Below are positions 35,473 to 48,523 of a DNA stretch of 60,219 nucleotides, piece by piece. The notes below the pieces were generated by a model that was not told where the DNA came from, did not search any database, and saw only the letters and a program-made list of their open reading frames with translations. Each line of letters begins with the position of its first letter. The first letter of the stretch is position 1. Where the stretch lies: positions 1-60,219 of the forward strand of contig JAFGCO010000009.1 of the NCBI GenBank assembly GCA_016932575.1, written 5' to 3'. The DNA comes from a bacterium (GTDB lineage Bacteria > Zhuqueibacterota > QNDG01 > JAFGCO01). Both the position numbers and the translations under genes were made by a program.

Positions 35473-36165
35473 ATGCGATTCAGCTCCTTGCACACATGGA
35501 TCCGGATAACATTTCTGGTCATTCTGTCAGCCGCGCCAATCACGCAGGCCAGGCAGGTCCGCATTGATTTTGATACCCTGTATGTGGAATCTCAAACACT
35601 GATGGGCAGCCTGCATATACATAACTTATTGGACAAGCAAAGCATAAAAGCGCTCAGAAAAGGCATGACAGCAATCATCGAGTACCGCGCCCAGATCTGG
35701 CACGAAAAAAACCGCTGGGTGAAATCAATGATTCACGAGCGCTATCGGCGGTTAAAAATTAATTACAATCACTGGGAACGAAAATATCAGGTTTTCTTTC
35801 AAGACGGTCAGTCCCGTTTGTATGAAGAACAGGAGCTCATCGATTATTGCCAGCAGCTAAGCGCTTTTAAAATAATCGATATCCACTCTCTGACAGAAGG
35901 ATACCGGTACCGGGTTGTGGCCCAGGTTTTGTTCAGACCCATGTCTATGGAAAATATACAGGAATTAAAACAGTGGCTTTCAGGAGAAGCTGATGAATTT
36001 GATCCGGGTGATATAAAGATCAGTAAATCTCCATGGAAAAAGGCCGGCGACTGGATCCTGAATGTTTTCGTGAATCTCACCGGCTTTGGAGATCAGGTGA
36101 TAACAGGGAAAAGTCCGCTTTTTTACCTGACAAACGGCCAACTATTGCTCGAAGAAAAATTGTAG
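35473..36165 (+). CDS. DUF4390-type exported protein
   Basis: The protein has 230 residues with a signal peptide cut after TQA (~residue 26). The mature part matches the DUF4390 style: LYVESQTLMGSLHIHNLLDK, IEYRAQIWHEKNRWV, YRRLKINYNHWERKYQVFF, YRYRVVAQVLFRPMSMENI, with a final WLSGEADEF...SPW block. In Proteobacteria such genes sit in front of NtrY-type kinases; here none follows, and a phosphatase gene comes next after 152 bp. The function is not known; the location is periplasmic. Confidence 0.75.
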   Translation: MRFSSLHTWIRITFLVILSAAPITQARQVRIDFDTLYVESQTLMGSLHIHNLLDKQSIKALRKGMTAIIEYRAQIWHEKNRWVKSMIHERYRRLKINYNHWERKYQVFFQDGQSRLYEEQELIDYCQQLSAFKIIDIHSLTEGYRYRVVAQVLFRPMSMENIQELKQWLSGEADEFDPGDIKISKSPWKKAGDWILNVFVNLTGFGDQVITGKSPLFYLTNGQLLLEEKL

Positions 36166-36317: not shown

Positions 36318-37256
36318 ATGAAAGCGATTGCAATGAATCCGCGCATTGCCGTCATAGACATCGGCACCAATTCCACACTGATGCTGATTGCTGAAATCAC
36401 AGCTCACGGATGCATAAAAGAAATCGCTCAATATGCAGAAACCACACGCCTGGGCCGGAAAATTCATCAGACAAAACGCATTGGCAAACAGGGCCTGAGC
36501 AACACACTGATAACTTTAAGGCGCTACCAGACTTTAATGAACAGGATGCATGTTGAAAAAACCGTAGTCGTGGGAACCCAGGTTTTTCGTCTGGCAAAAA
36601 ATCGTGAAAAAATATTAAGGATTATCCAGAATGAAACAGGCTTGCCCGTTCAAATACTCACAGAAAATCAGGAAGCCGAATACAGCTTTATTGGCGCTGT
36701 TTCCGGTAAAAAATTATCCGGAACGCTTGTGATCGATTCCGGCGGCGGAAGCACGGAAATCATTGCCGGAAAAAATAAAACCATTGCCGAAACGATCAGT
36801 CTCCCGGTCGGAGCCGTTGTCATGAACGATCAGTTTTTAAAAACAGATCCTCCGGATAAAAAAGAATGTGACATGATAAAGGAATATGTGGACAGTCAAA
36901 TCCCTTTAAAATGGAAAAATGCTCTGCAACAAACACCTCGGCTGATATATGTGGGAGGTACGGCCACAACTCTGGCAGCACTTCATCTTCAACAAAAAAT
37001 ATACGATCCATTTCGCGTGGACGGACTCAATCTCACTTCAACAGACATTCATCACTTACTCGATCGACTGTGCAATTGCCCGCTTCATACCCGACGGCAA
37101 CTGCTCTCGATTGATCCCAAACGCGCAGATATTATCATCGCCGGCACTCTGATTTTACAGACAATACTGGACCTGTCATCTAAAAAACGATTAATGATCA
37201 GAGACCGGGGCATGCGGCATGGCATTGCCCTGAAAACGGTTCAATCACAATTCTGA
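36318..37256 (+). CDS. Ppx/GppA-family phosphatase (exopolyphosphatase/pppGpp phosphatase)
   Basis: The protein has 312 residues, the short two-lobed ASKHA form without the C-terminal HD domain. Motifs: VIDIGTNSTLMLIAE (phosphate 1), GTQVFRLAKN, the catalytic E in LTENQEAEYSFIGA, LVIDSGGGSTEII (phosphate 2) and YVGGTATTLAAL (adenosine-site type). It hydrolyses polyphosphate ends or pppGpp; the sequence alone cannot separate these. An in-frame ATG at 36333 is an alternative start. Upstream 36166-36317 holds only a short AT-rich gap. Confidence 0.9.
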   Translation: MKAIAMNPRIAVIDIGTNSTLMLIAEITAHGCIKEIAQYAETTRLGRKIHQTKRIGKQGLSNTLITLRRYQTLMNRMHVEKTVVVGTQVFRLAKNREKILRIIQNETGLPVQILTENQEAEYSFIGAVSGKKLSGTLVIDSGGGSTEIIAGKNKTIAETISLPVGAVVMNDQFLKTDPPDKKECDMIKEYVDSQIPLKWKNALQQTPRLIYVGGTATTLAALHLQQKIYDPFRVDGLNLTSTDIHHLLDRLCNCPLHTRRQLLSIDPKRADIIIAGTLILQTILDLSSKKRLMIRDRGMRHGIALKTVQSQF

Positions 37257-37291
37257 ACGATACTGCGTAAAAACAAAAGTGATCTTAATAT

Positions 37292-37392
37292 AGAAGGCAA
37301 CCTTTTAAGATAAATATTTTGCTTTCCATGATCAGTCATGATGAATAGATAATCTTTATAAAAAACAATACCACTAAAAAAGGTTGCCTTCT
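37292..37392. repeat. 101-bp element with perfect 15-bp inverted ends
   Basis: AGAAGGCAACCTTTT (37292-37306) is the exact reverse complement of AAAAGGTTGCCTTCT (37378-37392). A small CATGA/TCATG hairpin (37327-37331, 37336-37340) sits in the AT-rich middle. No coding frame spans it and I see no target-site duplication. It could be a MITE-like element or a structured RNA. It lies in the gene-free 37257-37676, whose remainder (37420-37676) is AT-rich leader DNA for the next gene. Confidence 0.65.
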
Positions 37393-37419
37393 GTAACGGC
37401 TGCCAGCCAGCTGGCTTAC
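37393..37419 (+). other. Hairpin abutting the inverted-repeat element
   Basis: Directly after the right arm, GTAA (37393-37396) pairs with TTAC (37416-37419), and GCCAG (37402-37406) with CTGGC (37411-37415), closing a CCAG loop and leaving a five-base CGGCT bulge. The inner part includes the 12-bp palindrome AGCCAGCTGGCT (37405-37416). The bulged stem recalls REP-type hairpins. Confidence 0.5.
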
Positions 37420-37676: not shown

Positions 37677-39530
37677 ATGAAGATTACAAAACTGCATGTG
37701 ATACTTTTTTTGATTATAAGCATCGCCCCCATGATGACAAACGCACAAAAATTGTCAACCCGCCCGGCCAAACCTTGCCTGAACAAGCCAGTCACCTTCG
37801 AATTCACACCCAGCCCTGTATCATCCGGCCTTCAATCCTTGAATCTCATTCTGCGTACCCAGCTCATGGCGCATCCCGATACACTTGCCATGAATCATTC
37901 TGAACGCTTATGGACAGTGACAACAATTCTTAAAGACACATCAATATCCATCCTGCTGTTTCATCTTCAGGGACTGGATATCCAGGGCCGCCTTTATAGC
38001 ATGAAAGACCGGAACGAGCCGTTTGTGACTTTACTTTACAATATCAACGGTGCCCCTGTCCGGGATGCCTATATGTCAAAGGCGCTGTACTTAAGCGGCT
38101 ATGGAAATATCAGGAACGCCGATTTGACAAAAGCGATTGAGTCGATTGAACATGAATTAAATCAATATCCGGACAACTTTCCGGCCAGGCTTTTAAAATA
38201 CACGCTGATGATGCAGGAGCAGGGTCTTACGAATGAAGTTGTATTTTTTATTCGGGAAGACATTCAAAAAACACTCAGCAGGGAAAAAGATTCTGAGGAA
38301 GCACTGCATTTTGCATTGCAGGGCTACCAGATGATCGATGATGATCAGGCGATCCGGACAATTCAGGAAAAACTGATTCGAAAGAATCCGGGGGGCAGGC
38401 AGGCTGCTGCAAAAGAATTCAATGAAATTATGAGCCTTGACAATGCAAAAGAGCAGGCTTTGAAACTGGAAAAATTCATACAAAAGTATTCGGACAGCCG
38501 GTTAAATGAGATCGCACTGTCACAGCTTGCATCCACTGTCATTGAACTGGATGATTCAACAGCCATGATTGATGCCGGAGATCGTTTGACAGAGCAGGCA
38601 AAAACAATGTCAGGTGCCAGCGGACTATCCGCTTTGGCCGGTGTACTGGCTGAAAAAAAATGGAAGCTGGAGAGCGCACAGCGATATATCCGTCGGGCAA
38701 TGGAAATCATCAATCAGGTGAATCCGGATAATCCCCCGCCGGAAATATCCGAAGAAGAATGGCACGAACGAATTCAATACACAAAAGCCCGGTATCAGGA
38801 TATTACAGGATGGATTTTATTTCAGAAAAATGAATTCAAACAGGCATTGAGTGTACTGGAAGAAGCCTCCCGGGGATCCATGGAACCTGGGATATTGTTT
38901 CATCTGGCTGAAACATTAAACGCCATGGGAGAACAGGAACAGGCCCTATCCACCTATGCGCAAGCAGCTGCCTATGGCGGAGGTATAGCCGAAATGGCCA
39001 TGCAGAAATTAAATAAACTCTGGCAAACCACCGGGCGTGATTCCACCCAACTGGAGGTATATTTAAACAGTCGCGAAGATCAAGTCGAAAATGAATATAT
39101 CCAGAAAATACTGCGCAGACGGCAGATTAAAAAAGCACCTGATTTCACATTAAAGAGACTCAGCGGCGGCAGTGTAAAACTCTCTGATTCAAGAGGTCAA
39201 AAAGTATTACTCTGCTTCTGGGCGACATGGAGCGATGCTTCTGCACAGATGATGGAAGCAATACTGGAGATAGCCTCCGAGCGGGAAGATCTGGCCATAA
39301 TGGCTGTGGCTGTGGACCGGGATGCCTCGGATATTTCCCGTTTTGTGAGAGACAATCGCATTCCTTTTCAGGTGCTGCTCACAAACCGGCAGACTGAAAT
39401 GGAATATCAATTAAAAGGCGTGCCTGTTTTATATGTCATCGATCCTGACGGACGCATTCATTTTCAGCATAAGGGATTTCGGCCGGATCTGATCGAGGTC
39501 CTGAATATTGAACTGGACAACCTGCAATGA
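37677..39530 (+). CDS. Exported TPR-like protein with a cysteine-less TlpA/thioredoxin-like C-terminal domain
   Basis: The protein has 617 residues with a signal peptide ending at TNAQ. Residues ~25-120 are a beta-rich domain; ~130-480 are helical with TPR-like pairs (ALYLSGYGNIRNADLTKAIE, GWILFQKNEFKQALSVLEEA, MGEQEQALSTYAQAAAYGG). Residues ~485-617 are an AhpC/TlpA-type thioredoxin fold: KAPDFTLKRLSGGSVKLSD, LLCFWATW, then KGVPVLYVIDPDGRI. Where TlpA has W-C-x-x-C, this protein has W518-S-D-A-S522, so both redox cysteines are serine and disulfide chemistry is impossible. It begins a four-gene run ending with an Omp85 barrel. A scaffold or chaperone role in the periplasm is plausible (inference). 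Confidence 0.85.
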   Translation: MKITKLHVILFLIISIAPMMTNAQKLSTRPAKPCLNKPVTFEFTPSPVSSGLQSLNLILRTQLMAHPDTLAMNHSERLWTVTTILKDTSISILLFHLQGLDIQGRLYSMKDRNEPFVTLLYNINGAPVRDAYMSKALYLSGYGNIRNADLTKAIESIEHELNQYPDNFPARLLKYTLMMQEQGLTNEVVFFIREDIQKTLSREKDSEEALHFALQGYQMIDDDQAIRTIQEKLIRKNPGGRQAAAKEFNEIMSLDNAKEQALKLEKFIQKYSDSRLNEIALSQLASTVIELDDSTAMIDAGDRLTEQAKTMSGASGLSALAGVLAEKKWKLESAQRYIRRAMEIINQVNPDNPPPEISEEEWHERIQYTKARYQDITGWILFQKNEFKQALSVLEEASRGSMEPGILFHLAETLNAMGEQEQALSTYAQAAAYGGGIAEMAMQKLNKLWQTTGRDSTQLEVYLNSREDQVENEYIQKILRRRQIKKAPDFTLKRLSGGSVKLSDSRGQKVLLCFWATWSDASAQMMEAILEIASEREDLAIMAVAVDRDASDISRFVRDNRIPFQVLLTNRQTEMEYQLKGVPVLYVIDPDGRIHFQHKGFRPDLIEVLNIELDNLQ

Positions 39531-39543
39531 TCCGGGAATTTTC

Positions 39544-40374
39544 ATGCGACTTGTATACACATCAGATCTGCACGGTCATACCGAACGATACCATCAACTA
39601 CGGCATATCGTTTATCAGGCTCATCCCGATGTGATCATACTCGGAGGCGATTTACTGCCGCATCACAGAGATATAAAATCAAGCGTGCAGTCTCAAATTC
39701 AGTTCATCCGCCATGATTTTTATCATTTTCTTTCCGATTTACCCGCGAATATCCCCGTCGGAATCATTCTTGGAAATGATGATTGGGCCGCTGCACTATT
39801 AACCCTGCGTACTTTGGCAAAAAGATACTTTTTGTATTTAATCCATGACAAACCTTTGACTGTCAATGGCGTTGAAATTCTGGGTTATCCCTATGTCCCC
39901 CCCACCCCTTTTCTGGCCAAAGATTTTGAAAAACTCGATAAAAAAAACGATCCGCTTCCCGAGCATCCAGAAACATCCTATATCACACGCCGGAACACAG
40001 TTCAATCCATTGCCACCTCCAGTCTGTTTCGGCAGCGAAGCTCCATCGAAGAAGATTTATCTGGATATAATGCACATAAACAGACGATATTTGTATCTCA
40101 CGCACCCCCCGTCAGAACCTGTCTGGATCGTCTGCATGACGGAAGAGCAGTGGGCAGTCACTCAGTTAAAAACTGGATCCAGAGACAGCAGCCGCTGCTT
40201 TCTCTGCATGGGCATATCCACGAATCTCCACGGGTATCCGGACAGTTCATGGACAGAATTGGCAGTACAATCAGCATAAATCCCGGTCAGGTTGAAAATC
40301 AACTGAGTGCGGTTGTCATCCATATCAACACAATTATTCAGGCTGAACATACAGTATATGGATCAATGTCCTGA
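39544..40374 (+). CDS. Calcineurin-like metallophosphoesterase
   Basis: From ATG 39544 the protein has 276 residues; a longer frame from 39508 lies in the end of the previous gene. All metal-site motifs are visible: SDLHGH (D-x-H), ILGGDLLPH (GD), ILGNDD (GND), VSHAPP and LHGHIHE (GHxH). There is no signal peptide, so it is probably cytosolic, which is odd between three exported proteins. The substrate (cyclic nucleotide, UDP-sugar lipid or other phosphoester) cannot be inferred. It starts 13 bp after the TPR/TlpA-like gene and ends 13 bp before the VCBS protein. Confidence 0.85.
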   Translation: MRLVYTSDLHGHTERYHQLRHIVYQAHPDVIILGGDLLPHHRDIKSSVQSQIQFIRHDFYHFLSDLPANIPVGIILGNDDWAAALLTLRTLAKRYFLYLIHDKPLTVNGVEILGYPYVPPTPFLAKDFEKLDKKNDPLPEHPETSYITRRNTVQSIATSSLFRQRSSIEEDLSGYNAHKQTIFVSHAPPVRTCLDRLHDGRAVGSHSVKNWIQRQQPLLSLHGHIHESPRVSGQFMDRIGSTISINPGQVENQLSAVVIHINTIIQAEHTVYGSMS

Positions 40375-40387
40375 CAAGAGGCAGACA

Positions 40388-41851
40388 ATGAATATCAAAC
40401 TTACCTTTTTTTTCTGTTTCATTCTCCAGACAGTCCTGAGTTTTGCCGGGGACAGAAAAGAGATAAAAATCCCTCTGTTTGGTGTTCAAGAGGTATTTCC
40501 TGTCGATCTGGATCATGACAACGATCTCGACTTCATTGTTCTGCATCGGGATACTGAGGATCTGCAATATTCGTCCATGCGGTTTATTTCTATTTTTTTT
40601 CAGAACAGGGGAATTTATCAATCGACCGCGGATATAAGATATCGGGTCGGGGACCGGGATATTTTAGTCGATTGGGGGGATATGGATGGAGATGGCCTGA
40701 TGGAATTTTATATCATTCGTCCCGATGGCATTGTAAGCTGGTCACCGCAAAGGCCGGACTCCTTAATCCCTGTCCTGTTATCGCCTTCCATATTTTCAGG
40801 GGCCGACGCTGACAGGCTGGTGCACTGGCCGTTTCTCTGGGATATTGATGCAGATTCAACCTCCGAGATTATTCTCAATCAGAAACAGGGACTCCATGTC
40901 TATGCAAAAGACAGTTTAAATCATTATCGATTATCCGCAATATTACAAGTAAATTTCGAACATCGGCTCATAAGAGAAGAATCGTTAATTCTTCAGACCT
41001 GTCTGCCGCAAATGCTGTTAAAAGAGATGAATCATGACAATCGGCCGGATATTGTGTTCTTTTCGGATGACCGGCTCGCAGTATTCTATACCCAGACACG
41101 TCCCGGAATGATCTATACACAGCCGATTCTGCCCGATTATATCTTCCGGTTTTCCATGAAAGATTCGCATTTATCTATGCTGGAGGCACTGGCCCCGGCC
41201 GATATGTCGATTGAATTGGATGATTTAAACAGGGATGGTTGCAGCGATATCGTCTTTTCCAGAGCATCGAAAGCAGGTTTTACCAAAACGCTCAGCCAGG
41301 TTCAGCTTTATTACTGTACAGAGGGAAAGTTTCAGCCCCTGCCGGATCATGTTTTAATGGCCGAAAATTTTTATGGCGATCATGTAATCGCCGATTTCAA
41401 CAGCGATGGCCGAAAAGACATTGCCCTGCTTCAATTTCCCATCGGATTAGTGGGAGCAGCAAAATTCTTAATAACACGGCGAATCAAATATGGATTCGAT
41501 ATCTATCTCCAAAAACCGGATGGACACTTCAAGGATGAGCCTGATCACCGGATTCGTTTTTCCCGGCATTCGAATATCAGTCATGTTTTAAGACCCGAAT
41601 ATTCTGAATTCACCGACTGGGACGGAAATGGCCGGCTGGATCTGCTTGTGAATGTGGATCATCAGCAGATCATTGGCTTTATTCAAAAAAATACAGGTGG
41701 ATTTTCGAAACACCCCGATGTTAAAATTAAAATTCCTGTATCACCCCAACACTGGACCGGCGATTTAAATAATGATCGTCAGGCGGATATTGTACTTTGG
41801 TATGAAGATCCGGGTGAAATTCGGTGCCTGATGAGCAGGGCAGATCCATGA
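40388..41851 (+). CDS. Exported FG-GAP/VCBS repeat protein
   Basis: The ATG at 40388 (487 residues) starts right before the signal peptide (MNIKLTFFFCFILQTVLSFA). Eight calcium-binding-type repeats are visible: DLDHDNDLDFIVL, DMDGDGLMEFYII, DIDADSTSEIILN, EMNHDNRPDIVFF, DLNRDGCSDIVFS, DFNSDGRKDIALL, DWDGNGRLDLLVN and DLNNDRQADIVLW. Such repeats build a seven- or eight-blade integrin-like propeller. Because the protein has no sorting domain, it probably stays in the periplasm or under the outer membrane. Its stop overlaps the Omp85 start (ATGA), so the two are translationally coupled and may form a complex (inference). Confidence 0.88.
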   Translation: MNIKLTFFFCFILQTVLSFAGDRKEIKIPLFGVQEVFPVDLDHDNDLDFIVLHRDTEDLQYSSMRFISIFFQNRGIYQSTADIRYRVGDRDILVDWGDMDGDGLMEFYIIRPDGIVSWSPQRPDSLIPVLLSPSIFSGADADRLVHWPFLWDIDADSTSEIILNQKQGLHVYAKDSLNHYRLSAILQVNFEHRLIREESLILQTCLPQMLLKEMNHDNRPDIVFFSDDRLAVFYTQTRPGMIYTQPILPDYIFRFSMKDSHLSMLEALAPADMSIELDDLNRDGCSDIVFSRASKAGFTKTLSQVQLYYCTEGKFQPLPDHVLMAENFYGDHVIADFNSDGRKDIALLQFPIGLVGAAKFLITRRIKYGFDIYLQKPDGHFKDEPDHRIRFSRHSNISHVLRPEYSEFTDWDGNGRLDLLVNVDHQQIIGFIQKNTGGFSKHPDVKIKIPVSPQHWTGDLNNDRQADIVLWYEDPGEIRCLMSRADP

Positions 41852-43074
41852 AACAAACCTGGATATGTATCATTCTCCTTCCTTGCATGCTTGCCGCCAA
41901 AACGCCGATTCTGCAAAAAATTGCACTGTTTGGTAACAGAACAACCAAATCACATGTTATTCTAAGAGAATTAAGTATGCAGGCGGGTGATCCGGTTACT
42001 GATTCTCTTCTGATCAGCGATCGGGCATGGCTGATCCGGTCTGATTTTTTGGATAAAATTGATTTTCAATTGAAGCCTGGTTATCAAAATAATGAATGCC
42101 ATTTATTAATCGTCGTTCAGGAAAAAAGATGCTGGTCATTTTCTCCCTCATTTCATACGGATGATTTGTTCGGGATGTATGGAGGCGGCACATTTAAGCT
42201 TCGCAATCTATGGGGACGCCGTCATAAAATCAGTCTTAAAATTGAAACCGGCGGAAAAAAACGAATCCGGTTAATGTGGGAGAATCCATGGCTTGCCGGT
42301 TCCTGGCGGCTCTTCTCGAGCATGAGTCTCTATGCGAAAGAGATATCCTATCCTTATCCCGATTATCCTTTGGAATTTCTTGATAAAACATGGGGAGTCG
42401 AATTAAAACTGGGAAAACAAATCGCAAGGCACATCCGATATGGTTTGCATGTATCATGGGAAAATATTCAAACAGATTTGCCGGCTGTCAACCTTTCGGG
42501 GCGAAATTCAGATGAACCTGTATTGACCGGACTTTTTTGCAATGTGGACACAAGAGACTGGCCCGACTATCCCCGTCATGGATATTTTCTTTATGCAGGT
42601 GCCGATTATACGAATATATCAAATCATCAGTATGCGCATGCCATTTTAAATCTGAGGAATTATTTTCCGATAAAACGAAATGATATTCTGGCTGTTCAAT
42701 GGCTTATTCAGGGATTTCAGGGCGACATCCCCATTTATAAACGTCTTCATCTCGGAGGCGGAGATACTGTACGCGGCATTCCTACAGGTTTGCTGGCCGG
42801 TGACCGGTTTGTTATGGCCAACGTGGAATATCGGTTCCCCATCATGTATGAGCGTAATTTTAAAGAAAATGTAAATCTGGGCTATGGCGGCGTCCTCTTT
42901 TTTGATCTTGGTTCCGCCTGGTTTTCAAGAGAACCATGGACACTGGACGACTGCCGAAGCGCTTTGGGAATCGGTATTCACGGCATCTGGGATCATTATG
43001 TGGTACGCGGCGAATACGGAACACATGGCAAAGGATGGGGATTTATCAATATCGGTACCAGTGTGCATTTTTAA
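41848..43074 (+). CDS. Omp85-superfamily outer-membrane protein with one POTRA domain
   Basis: The protein has 408 residues; a signal peptide ends near MLAAK. Residues ~25-97 form a single POTRA (ILQKIALFGNRTTKSHVILR, RSDFLDKIDFQLKP, LLIVVQEK). The rest is a 16-strand Omp85 barrel with the loop-6 motif GGGDTVRGIPTGLLAGDRF and a final aromatic strand GFINIGTSVHF. BamA has five POTRAs, TamA three and FhaC two, so this is a minimal form and not the general BamA. Family members insert or secrete proteins or lipids across the outer membrane. It ends the four-gene operon, 12 bp from the convergent purC. Confidence 0.9.
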   Translation: MKQTWICIILLPCMLAAKTPILQKIALFGNRTTKSHVILRELSMQAGDPVTDSLLISDRAWLIRSDFLDKIDFQLKPGYQNNECHLLIVVQEKRCWSFSPSFHTDDLFGMYGGGTFKLRNLWGRRHKISLKIETGGKKRIRLMWENPWLAGSWRLFSSMSLYAKEISYPYPDYPLEFLDKTWGVELKLGKQIARHIRYGLHVSWENIQTDLPAVNLSGRNSDEPVLTGLFCNVDTRDWPDYPRHGYFLYAGADYTNISNHQYAHAILNLRNYFPIKRNDILAVQWLIQGFQGDIPIYKRLHLGGGDTVRGIPTGLLAGDRFVMANVEYRFPIMYERNFKENVNLGYGGVLFFDLGSAWFSREPWTLDDCRSALGIGIHGIWDHYVVRGEYGTHGKGWGFINIGTSVHF

Positions 43075-47419: not shown

Positions 47420-48523
47420 ATGAAACGACGTGAGTTTATAAAAAGCAGCGCTGCCCTCGGCACCCTGCCTCTTACCGGTTTAAAATCCGGCTCTTCGGTT
47501 TTTTTAAAGTCTCCAAAATCACCATTTTCCCGCTACTGCGGATTTAATCTGCTGGCCAAATTCAGCGGGCGCGAACCGAGGCGTAAATTCAACGAAGAAG
47601 ATTTTGAGATCATGGCCGAGTGGGGTTTTGACTTTGCACGAATTCCCATGTCCTACTGGAACTGGACATCTCCGGATGACTGGTATACAATCGACGAAAC
47701 AGTTTTTCAGGATATTGACGAGGTAATCGAGCTGGGCAGAAAGTACAGTATCCATATTAACCTGAACATGCATCGTGTTCCCGGTTACTGTATCAATGGA
47801 CGCGATCAGGAACCCATGGATCTTTTTAATGACACTGCAGAAAATATGCAGAAAGCGTTGGATGCGGTGAATTTTCACTGGAAATACTTAGCCATGCGAT
47901 ACAGGGACATTCCCAACAGGCATCTGAGTTTTGATCTGATCAATGAGCCTCCGCATATGACAACCGAAGCACGCTATGTTGAGGTGGTAAAAACGCTCGT
48001 TGCCGGAATCCGGAAGGAGGATCCGGACCGCATAATCGTGGCCGATGGTAAAGATGTGGGCAGGACGCCTGTCTTTGGCATTGCGGATCTGGGACTGGTG
48101 CAAAGCACCCGGGGATATGATCCCATGAGTGTCAGTCACTATACAGCAGGCTGGGTGCCTCGAGAAGAATTTGAAACATTCGACAAACCCACCTGGCCAC
48201 TCAAAGGAGATGATGGCAAAGCATGGGACAAATCCGCACTTAAAAAGAAACTTATTGATCCCTGGAAGCCACTGATGGATCAGGGCGTTCCTGTGCATGT
48301 AGGAGAATGGGGCTGTTATAACAGGACACCGCATGATGTGGCCTTGAGATGGATGCGCGATATGTTGTCTCTTTGGAAAGACGCAGGCTGGGGATATGCC
48401 TTGTGGAACTTAAAGGGATCATTCGGTGTGCTCAACAGTGAACGAGCCGATGTTGTCTATGAAAACTACAAAGGCCATAAACTGGACCGGAAAATGCTGG
48501 AACTTTTGAAAGCCTTTTCATGA
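47420..48523 (+). CDS. Tat-exported glycoside hydrolase family 5 enzyme
   Basis: The protein has 367 residues. The N-terminus MKRREFIKSSAALGTLPLTG carries a twin-arginine signal. The GH5 barrel then shows GFDFARIPMSYWNW, INLNMHRVPGY, the acid/base E176 in FDLINEPPH, SVSHYTAGWV, and the nucleophile E296 in HVGEWGCYN, with W384-type aromatic ALWNLKG after it. It should cleave beta-linked glucan or mannan. There is no sorting domain or CBM, so it probably acts in the periplasm after folding in the cytoplasm. It is not linked to the GH16 gene but may act on the products of that enzyme. Confidence 0.9.
   Translation: MKRREFIKSSAALGTLPLTGLKSGSSVFLKSPKSPFSRYCGFNLLAKFSGREPRRKFNEEDFEIMAEWGFDFARIPMSYWNWTSPDDWYTIDETVFQDIDEVIELGRKYSIHINLNMHRVPGYCINGRDQEPMDLFNDTAENMQKALDAVNFHWKYLAMRYRDIPNRHLSFDLINEPPHMTTEARYVEVVKTLVAGIRKEDPDRIIVADGKDVGRTPVFGIADLGLVQSTRGYDPMSVSHYTAGWVPREEFETFDKPTWPLKGDDGKAWDKSALKKKLIDPWKPLMDQGVPVHVGEWGCYNRTPHDVALRWMRDMLSLWKDAGWGYALWNLKGSFGVLNSERADVVYENYKGHKLDRKMLELLKAFS

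What the first reader, a model, noticed from the sequence alone, without database searches (positions are those of the whole stretch)
37677..43074. Four-gene operon ending in a single-POTRA Omp85 coupled to a VCBS propeller protein
Gaps are 13 bp, 13 bp and a 4-bp ATGA overlap. Three exported proteins (TPR plus cysteine-less thioredoxin-like, eight-repeat VCBS, minimal Omp85) enclose a cytosolic metallophosphoesterase. The Omp85 is too short to be BamA or TamA. Together they could form an uncharacterised outer-membrane assembly or export machine with a periplasmic propeller adaptor.
Basis: partly seen in the sequence, partly recalled or inferred. Interest (0 to 1): 0.6.

Follow-up and report, generated by a model that had tools for sequence, protein, structure and literature searches.

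The report
Propeller gene paired with small Omp85
In one order of the little-known bacterial phylum KSB1, a gene for a calcium-type beta-propeller protein almost always sits directly in front of a gene for a stripped-down outer-membrane assembly barrel; this suggests that the two proteins work together, but how is untested.

Summary
The four genes, gaps (13, 13, -4 bp ATGA) and domains are confirmed. AlphaFold gives the last protein (D) one POTRA and a 16-strand Omp85 barrel with an RG-type lid loop; it is BamA-like, not BamA, TamA or TpsB. But the four genes are not one unit. TPR/dead-thioredoxin (A) and phosphoesterase (B) form a second module that moves independently; B's ortholog is in 7 of 12. 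The common array is DUF4390-Ppx-A-B-C-D-E-RsmE, where E is a second single-POTRA Omp85 missing from this genome, and a MITE-like repeat lies between Ppx and A, so the 'four-gene operon' is partly a local product. C homologs occur in 14 of 70 other genomes of the phylum without D beside them; D was found only in this order. Best reading: D is an accessory BamA-like insertase/translocase and C its exported propeller partner, by analogy with BamA-BamB. Contact is unproven; C as D's cargo, or mere co-transcription, remain serious rivals. New variant of a known kind; moderate interest.

The parts
35473..36165 (+). DUF4390 protein (PF14334), 230 aa; left end of the conserved array in relatives
   Evidence: Pfam E 2.1e-9; upstream in the array in G001, G002, G007, G008, G009 and, with Ppx-A-B, on a separate contig in G006
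36318..37256 (+). Ppx/GppA phosphatase, 312 aa; usual upstream neighbour of A in relatives
   Evidence: Pfam E 2.4e-54; directly before A in G001, G003, G006, G007, G008
37289..37395 (.). MITE-like element: 18-nt inverted repeats, 71-nt spacer, in the 420-bp gap between Ppx and A
   Evidence: related copies at G000:C18:10210-10320 and, shorter, G000:C29:38820-38855
37677..39530 (+). Gene A: exported TPR protein with a C-terminal TlpA/ResA-like thioredoxin domain lacking the catalytic CxxC (WSDAS)
   Evidence: in 11 of 12 genomes of the order
39544..40374 (+). Gene B: metallophosphoesterase, predicted cytosolic
   Evidence: ortholog beside A in all 7 genomes that have it
40388..41851 (+). Gene C: exported FG-GAP/VCBS beta-propeller, eight DxDxDG-like motifs
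   Evidence: single copy in 12 of 12 genomes of the order
41848..43074 (+). Gene D: single-POTRA, 16-strand BamA-like Omp85 (POTRA residues 21-93, barrel 96-406, VRGI motif in the lid loop after strand 11)
   Evidence: own clade in the tree

Best explanation
C and D are a functional pair. D is an accessory BamA-like Omp85 in the outer membrane. With its single membrane-proximal POTRA and its lidded 16-strand barrel, it most likely folds, inserts or exports a subset of envelope proteins, alongside the genome's normal BamA and TamA. C is exported and folds as a calcium-type propeller that most likely docks near D's periplasmic mouth as a substrate or scaffold adaptor, as the unrelated propeller BamB does for BamA. 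A (periplasmic TPR plus redox-dead thioredoxin) and B (cytosolic phosphoesterase) are a linked but separable second module. Shown: gene order, domains, fold class, conservation. Inferred: joint action, C's location, D's activity. Not shown: any contact or any substrate.
For: C and D are neighbours in 11 of 12 genomes spanning six families, at 31-45% identity for D, and stay together when A-B leaves (G006) or is lost (G002). None of the window genes outside DUF4390-D that were used as probes (CysE, aldolase-like, SAICAR synthetase, DUF481, oxidoreductase, PhoH, 47420-48523) was found in the relatives' 6-19 kb loci around the pair, so the adjacency is above local background. D models as a complete Omp85: Z 23.3 to B. 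thetaiotaomicron BamA (rmsd 3.9, 354 aligned), 22.8 to F. nucleatum BamA, 21.9 to P. aeruginosa TamA. All D sequences keep the RG of the lid motif. C models as a propeller; integrin, lectins and BamB tie at Z about 14. Precedent: the same genome has a PD40 propeller fused to an Omp85 barrel, and WD40-Omp85 is a described subfamily likened to a BamA-BamB fusion (PMC4104836). The spirochaete BAM is BamA, propeller BamB and TPR BamD only (PMC13382580).
Against: C is found in 14 of 70 non-order genomes without D beside it, and its most distinctive stretch (around GxxxxxxFLLTRR) is largely shared with those, so C's ancestral job did not need D next door. In G007 C and D lie on different contigs. 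C-D distance correlation (Mantel r 0.91, 12 taxa) is not clearly above matched controls: 0.79 against D-RsmE 0.84 on the same nine taxa. BamB binds POTRA3 (PMC13382580), which D lacks. C has no lipobox by eye. No complex model could be run.
Confidence: 0.4

Rival explanations
1. C is D's cargo. D is a dedicated translocator, as in two-partner secretion or PlpD, and C is a surface or secreted propeller carried through it.
For: Cargo gene directly before translocator gene is a usual two-partner arrangement (general knowledge). C is exported, with integrin- and lectin-like folds typical of surface proteins. The genome also has patatin-Omp85 proteins, the PlpD type, and in one relative a patatin-Omp85 follows C (G034, L147).
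Against: C homologs without D beside them must be exported by another route. D lacks the two POTRAs of TpsB, and ShlB/FhaC Pfam matches in D homologs are weak, only one reaching the cutoff. Pfam shows no TPS domain in C.
Confidence: 0.22
2. Only co-transcription: C, D, E, A and B are separate envelope genes kept in one array without direct contact.
For: The array also holds Ppx, DUF4390, RsmE and glmM-like genes with no evident link to Omp85. A-B and C-D-E separate in G006, and C from D-E in G007. The C-D rate correlation is close to that of controls.
Against: C-D outlasts the other links (11 of 12), whereas B, E, A and the flanking genes are lost or moved in several genomes.
Confidence: 0.3
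3. A-B-C-D is one BAM-like machine with TPR (A, like BamD), propeller (C, like BamB) and barrel (D, like BamA).
For: The parts list resembles the minimal spirochaete BAM: BamA, BamB, BamD (PMC13382580). A is in 11 of 12 genomes.
Against: A lies with B, Ppx and DUF4390 apart from C-D-E in G006, and is absent from G002, which keeps C-D. A does not match BamD models in Pfam or NCBIfam.
Confidence: 0.08

Closest known systems
BamA-like Omp85 subfamily (Heinz and Lithgow 2014, PMC4104836)
   Same: 1-3 POTRAs plus Omp85 barrel, divergent from BamA, present in addition to BamA
   Different: Propeller gene as a fixed neighbour and a clade found only in one KSB1 order; no such pairing found in the papers searched
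BamA-BamB of the BAM complex
   Same: POTRA-Omp85 barrel with an exported propeller; the fold of C ties with BamB at Z about 14
   Different: One POTRA, without the POTRA3 that BamB binds; C is FG-GAP, not PQQ-type, and has no lipobox by eye
WD40-Omp85 fusions
   Same: Propeller coupled to an Omp85 barrel; a PD40-propeller protein with an Omp85 barrel lies in the same genome
   Different: Here in trans, with a different propeller family, and with a POTRA
E, the phylum-wide single-POTRA Omp85 near RsmE
   Same: Single POTRA, similar size, near D in 9 relatives, 24-27% identical to it
   Different: D is a separate clade on a long branch (100/99) and was found only in this order

Membership tests
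Omp85 superfamily | Omp85 16-strand barrel | tested here: met
   PF01103 56.6 bits against cutoff 24; 16 strands in the model; Z 23.3 to BamA
BamA-like subfamily | 1-3 POTRAs before the barrel | tested here: met
   One POTRA in the model, residues 21-93
BamA-like subfamily | Present in addition to a BamA in the same genome | tested here: met
   784-aa BamA with four or more POTRA matches on C18
BamA-like subfamily | Falls in the published BamA-like sequence cluster | not tested
   The published clusters (PMC4104836 tables) were not available as sequences
BamA | Curated full-length score (TIGR03303) and multiple POTRAs | tested here: not met
   105.9 bits against cutoff 297.15; one POTRA
TamA | Three POTRAs | tested here: not met
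   One POTRA; the genome's TamA candidate lies beside a TamB-like gene on C18
TpsB (FhaC type) | Two POTRAs and TpsB-type barrel | tested here: not met
   One POTRA; no ShlB match for D itself at E<=1
BamB | Outer-membrane lipoprotein that binds BamA POTRA3 | not testable with these tools
   No complex prediction; C has no lipobox by eye; the fold match is generic
FG-GAP/VCBS propeller | FG-GAP_3 repeats with DxDxDG motifs | tested here: met
   PF13517 81.4 bits against 26.9; eight motifs (one read by eye)

The most novel reading that the evidence does not exclude
A clade-specific outer-membrane assembly or export machine in which a calcium-type FG-GAP propeller docks on the sole POTRA of a minimal Omp85, a propeller-POTRA coupling evolved independently of BamA-BamB.
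Probability: 0.2. Interest if true: 0.65.

Novelty: new variant of a known kind. Interest (0 to 1): 0.38.

Why it matters
The recent Bacteroidota BAM structure showed that accessory parts of the barrel-assembly machinery can differ greatly between phyla (PMC12611786, abstract). KSB1-type bacteria are known here only from metagenome assemblies. A conserved trans pair of propeller and single-POTRA Omp85 gives a small, specific target to test whether propeller docking on Omp85 evolved more than once, and what the many 'BamA-like' paralogs do.

Tried and rejected
D as ortholog of the NtrYX-linked single-POTRA Omp85 of other KSB1-phylum families (which also neighbours DUF4390): rejected by the tree, where those form another clade. 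The 464-478 aa lipoprotein before that Omp85 as a second propeller: no convincing Pfam match and no profile match to C. C-D co-evolution as proof: not clearly above controls. A C patch specific to the order as a D-binding site: only ten scattered positions. Rfam: nothing in the window. No promoter- or terminator-like site stood out at the ends of the array. The alignment of seven D sequences was too diverse for the collection scan; four sequences worked and found D in five order-mates plus two weak partial hits. Literature: no paper with Omp85 together with VCBS or FG-GAP in the library. The BamD search gave many TPR proteins, so the genome's BamD was not settled.

Full report
Observation. Pfam gives A a C-terminal AhpC-TSA/redoxin domain with weak TPRs, B a metallophosphoesterase, C FG-GAP_3 repeats, and D Omp85 with a POTRA match just under the cutoff. 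In A the redox motif is S-D-A-S instead of CxxC. All relatives aligned also lack CxxC, so this is a conserved redox-dead domain; one other Cys remains, so 'cysteine-less' is not exact. A, C and D begin with signal-peptide-like stretches by eye; no signal predictor was run.

Structure. AF2 on a seven-row alignment gives D pLDDT 80.9 and pTM 0.74: strand 21-28, helices 35-39 and 52-64, strands 68-77 and 83-92 (one POTRA), then 16 barrel strands between 96 and 406, with the VRGI motif in the long loop after strand 11. Closest solved folds are BamA (9hiv Z 23.3, 9ccg Z 22.8) and TamA (8us2 Z 21.9). C gave a lower-confidence propeller (pLDDT 71.9, pTM 0.69), like integrin alpha heads, fungal lectins and BamB at Z about 14, which is generic propeller likeness. 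The blade number (7 or 8) is not settled; there are eight DxDxDG-like motifs.

Organism and genome. An order-mate record is named candidate division KSB1. The window's genome has ten Omp85 matches. They include a 784-aa BamA beside a TamB-like 1353-aa protein and lipid A genes, a 596-aa TamA candidate after a 1321-aa TamB-like protein, two patatin-Omp85 proteins, and two long proteins with a PD40 propeller, one with a clear Omp85 barrel. D is an extra.

Conservation. All 12 held genomes of the order have one C and a D. In G001 D is cut by a contig end and in G011 it is frameshifted. C and D are adjacent in 11 of 12; G007 has them on two contigs. The common array is DUF4390 - Ppx - A - (B) - C - D - E - RsmE, where E is a second single-POTRA Omp85. 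E is missing from the window's genome and from its place in G008. In G006 the array is split into DUF4390-Ppx-A-B and C-D-E; in G007 into A-B-C and D-E; G002 lacks A and B. B's ortholog occurs in seven genomes, always beside A; the more distant phosphoesterases of G004, G005 and G009 lie elsewhere. In the window a MITE-like element (37289-37395) sits in the 420-bp gap between Ppx and A.

Outside the order. E-type Omp85 followed by RsmE, often after a barrel-only Omp85, is widespread in the phylum. D forms its own clade, beside E and its kin, with 100/99 support. No D was recognised outside the order among the 59 genomes searched or in the genome-contig scan, which relied on two short patterns. 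C homologs occur in 14 of 70 other genomes of the phylum, near BshA, secreted proteins with sorting tails, or ABC genes, and not next to D where the flanks could be read. One, in G034, is followed by a patatin-Omp85.

Co-evolution. C-D tree distances correlate at r 0.91 over 12 genomes. On the nine genomes shared with E, C-D is 0.78, C-E 0.52 and D-E 0.76. On the nine shared with RsmE, C-D is 0.79, C-RsmE 0.71 and D-RsmE 0.84. This is at most weak support beyond shared descent.

Mechanism. The likeliest account is an accessory BamA-like insertase or translocase with a propeller partner. C as cargo, and mere co-transcription, remain live. The spirochaete BAM of BamA, BamB and BamD (PMC13382580) and the WD40-Omp85 class (PMC4104836) are analogies, not proof; BamB's POTRA3 site has no counterpart in D.

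Verdict. A real, conserved pair, unreported as far as the searched papers show, built from known families: new variant of a known kind, interest 0.38.

Noticed in passing
window 37289-37395: MITE-like element with 18-nt inverted repeats; related copies on C18 (10210-10320) and, shorter, C29 (38820-38855) of the same genome.
   Followed up: partly
window 37677-39530 and relatives: A TlpA/ResA-like thioredoxin domain whose two catalytic Cys are replaced, mostly by Ser, in all ten sequences aligned: a conserved redox-dead domain on a TPR protein.
   Followed up: partly
L117 7045-12488, L119, L120, L121, L123, L132, L136: Another conserved array in other KSB1-phylum families: lipoprotein of unknown family - single-POTRA Omp85 - DUF4390 - NtrY-like kinase - NtrX-like regulator.
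   Followed up: partly
L021, L025, L026, L030, L032, L033, L035, L036, L038: Phylum-wide pair of a barrel-only Omp85 (DUF5686-like) and a single-POTRA Omp85 directly before RsmE.
   Followed up: partly
L141 5472-8666 and L145 5815-9123 (window's genome): Two long proteins with a peptidase-MA-like domain and a PD40 propeller; the first has a clear C-terminal Omp85 barrel.
   Followed up: no
L147 9808-13947 (G034): A C homolog followed by a patatin-Omp85 gene in a genome outside the order.
   Followed up: no
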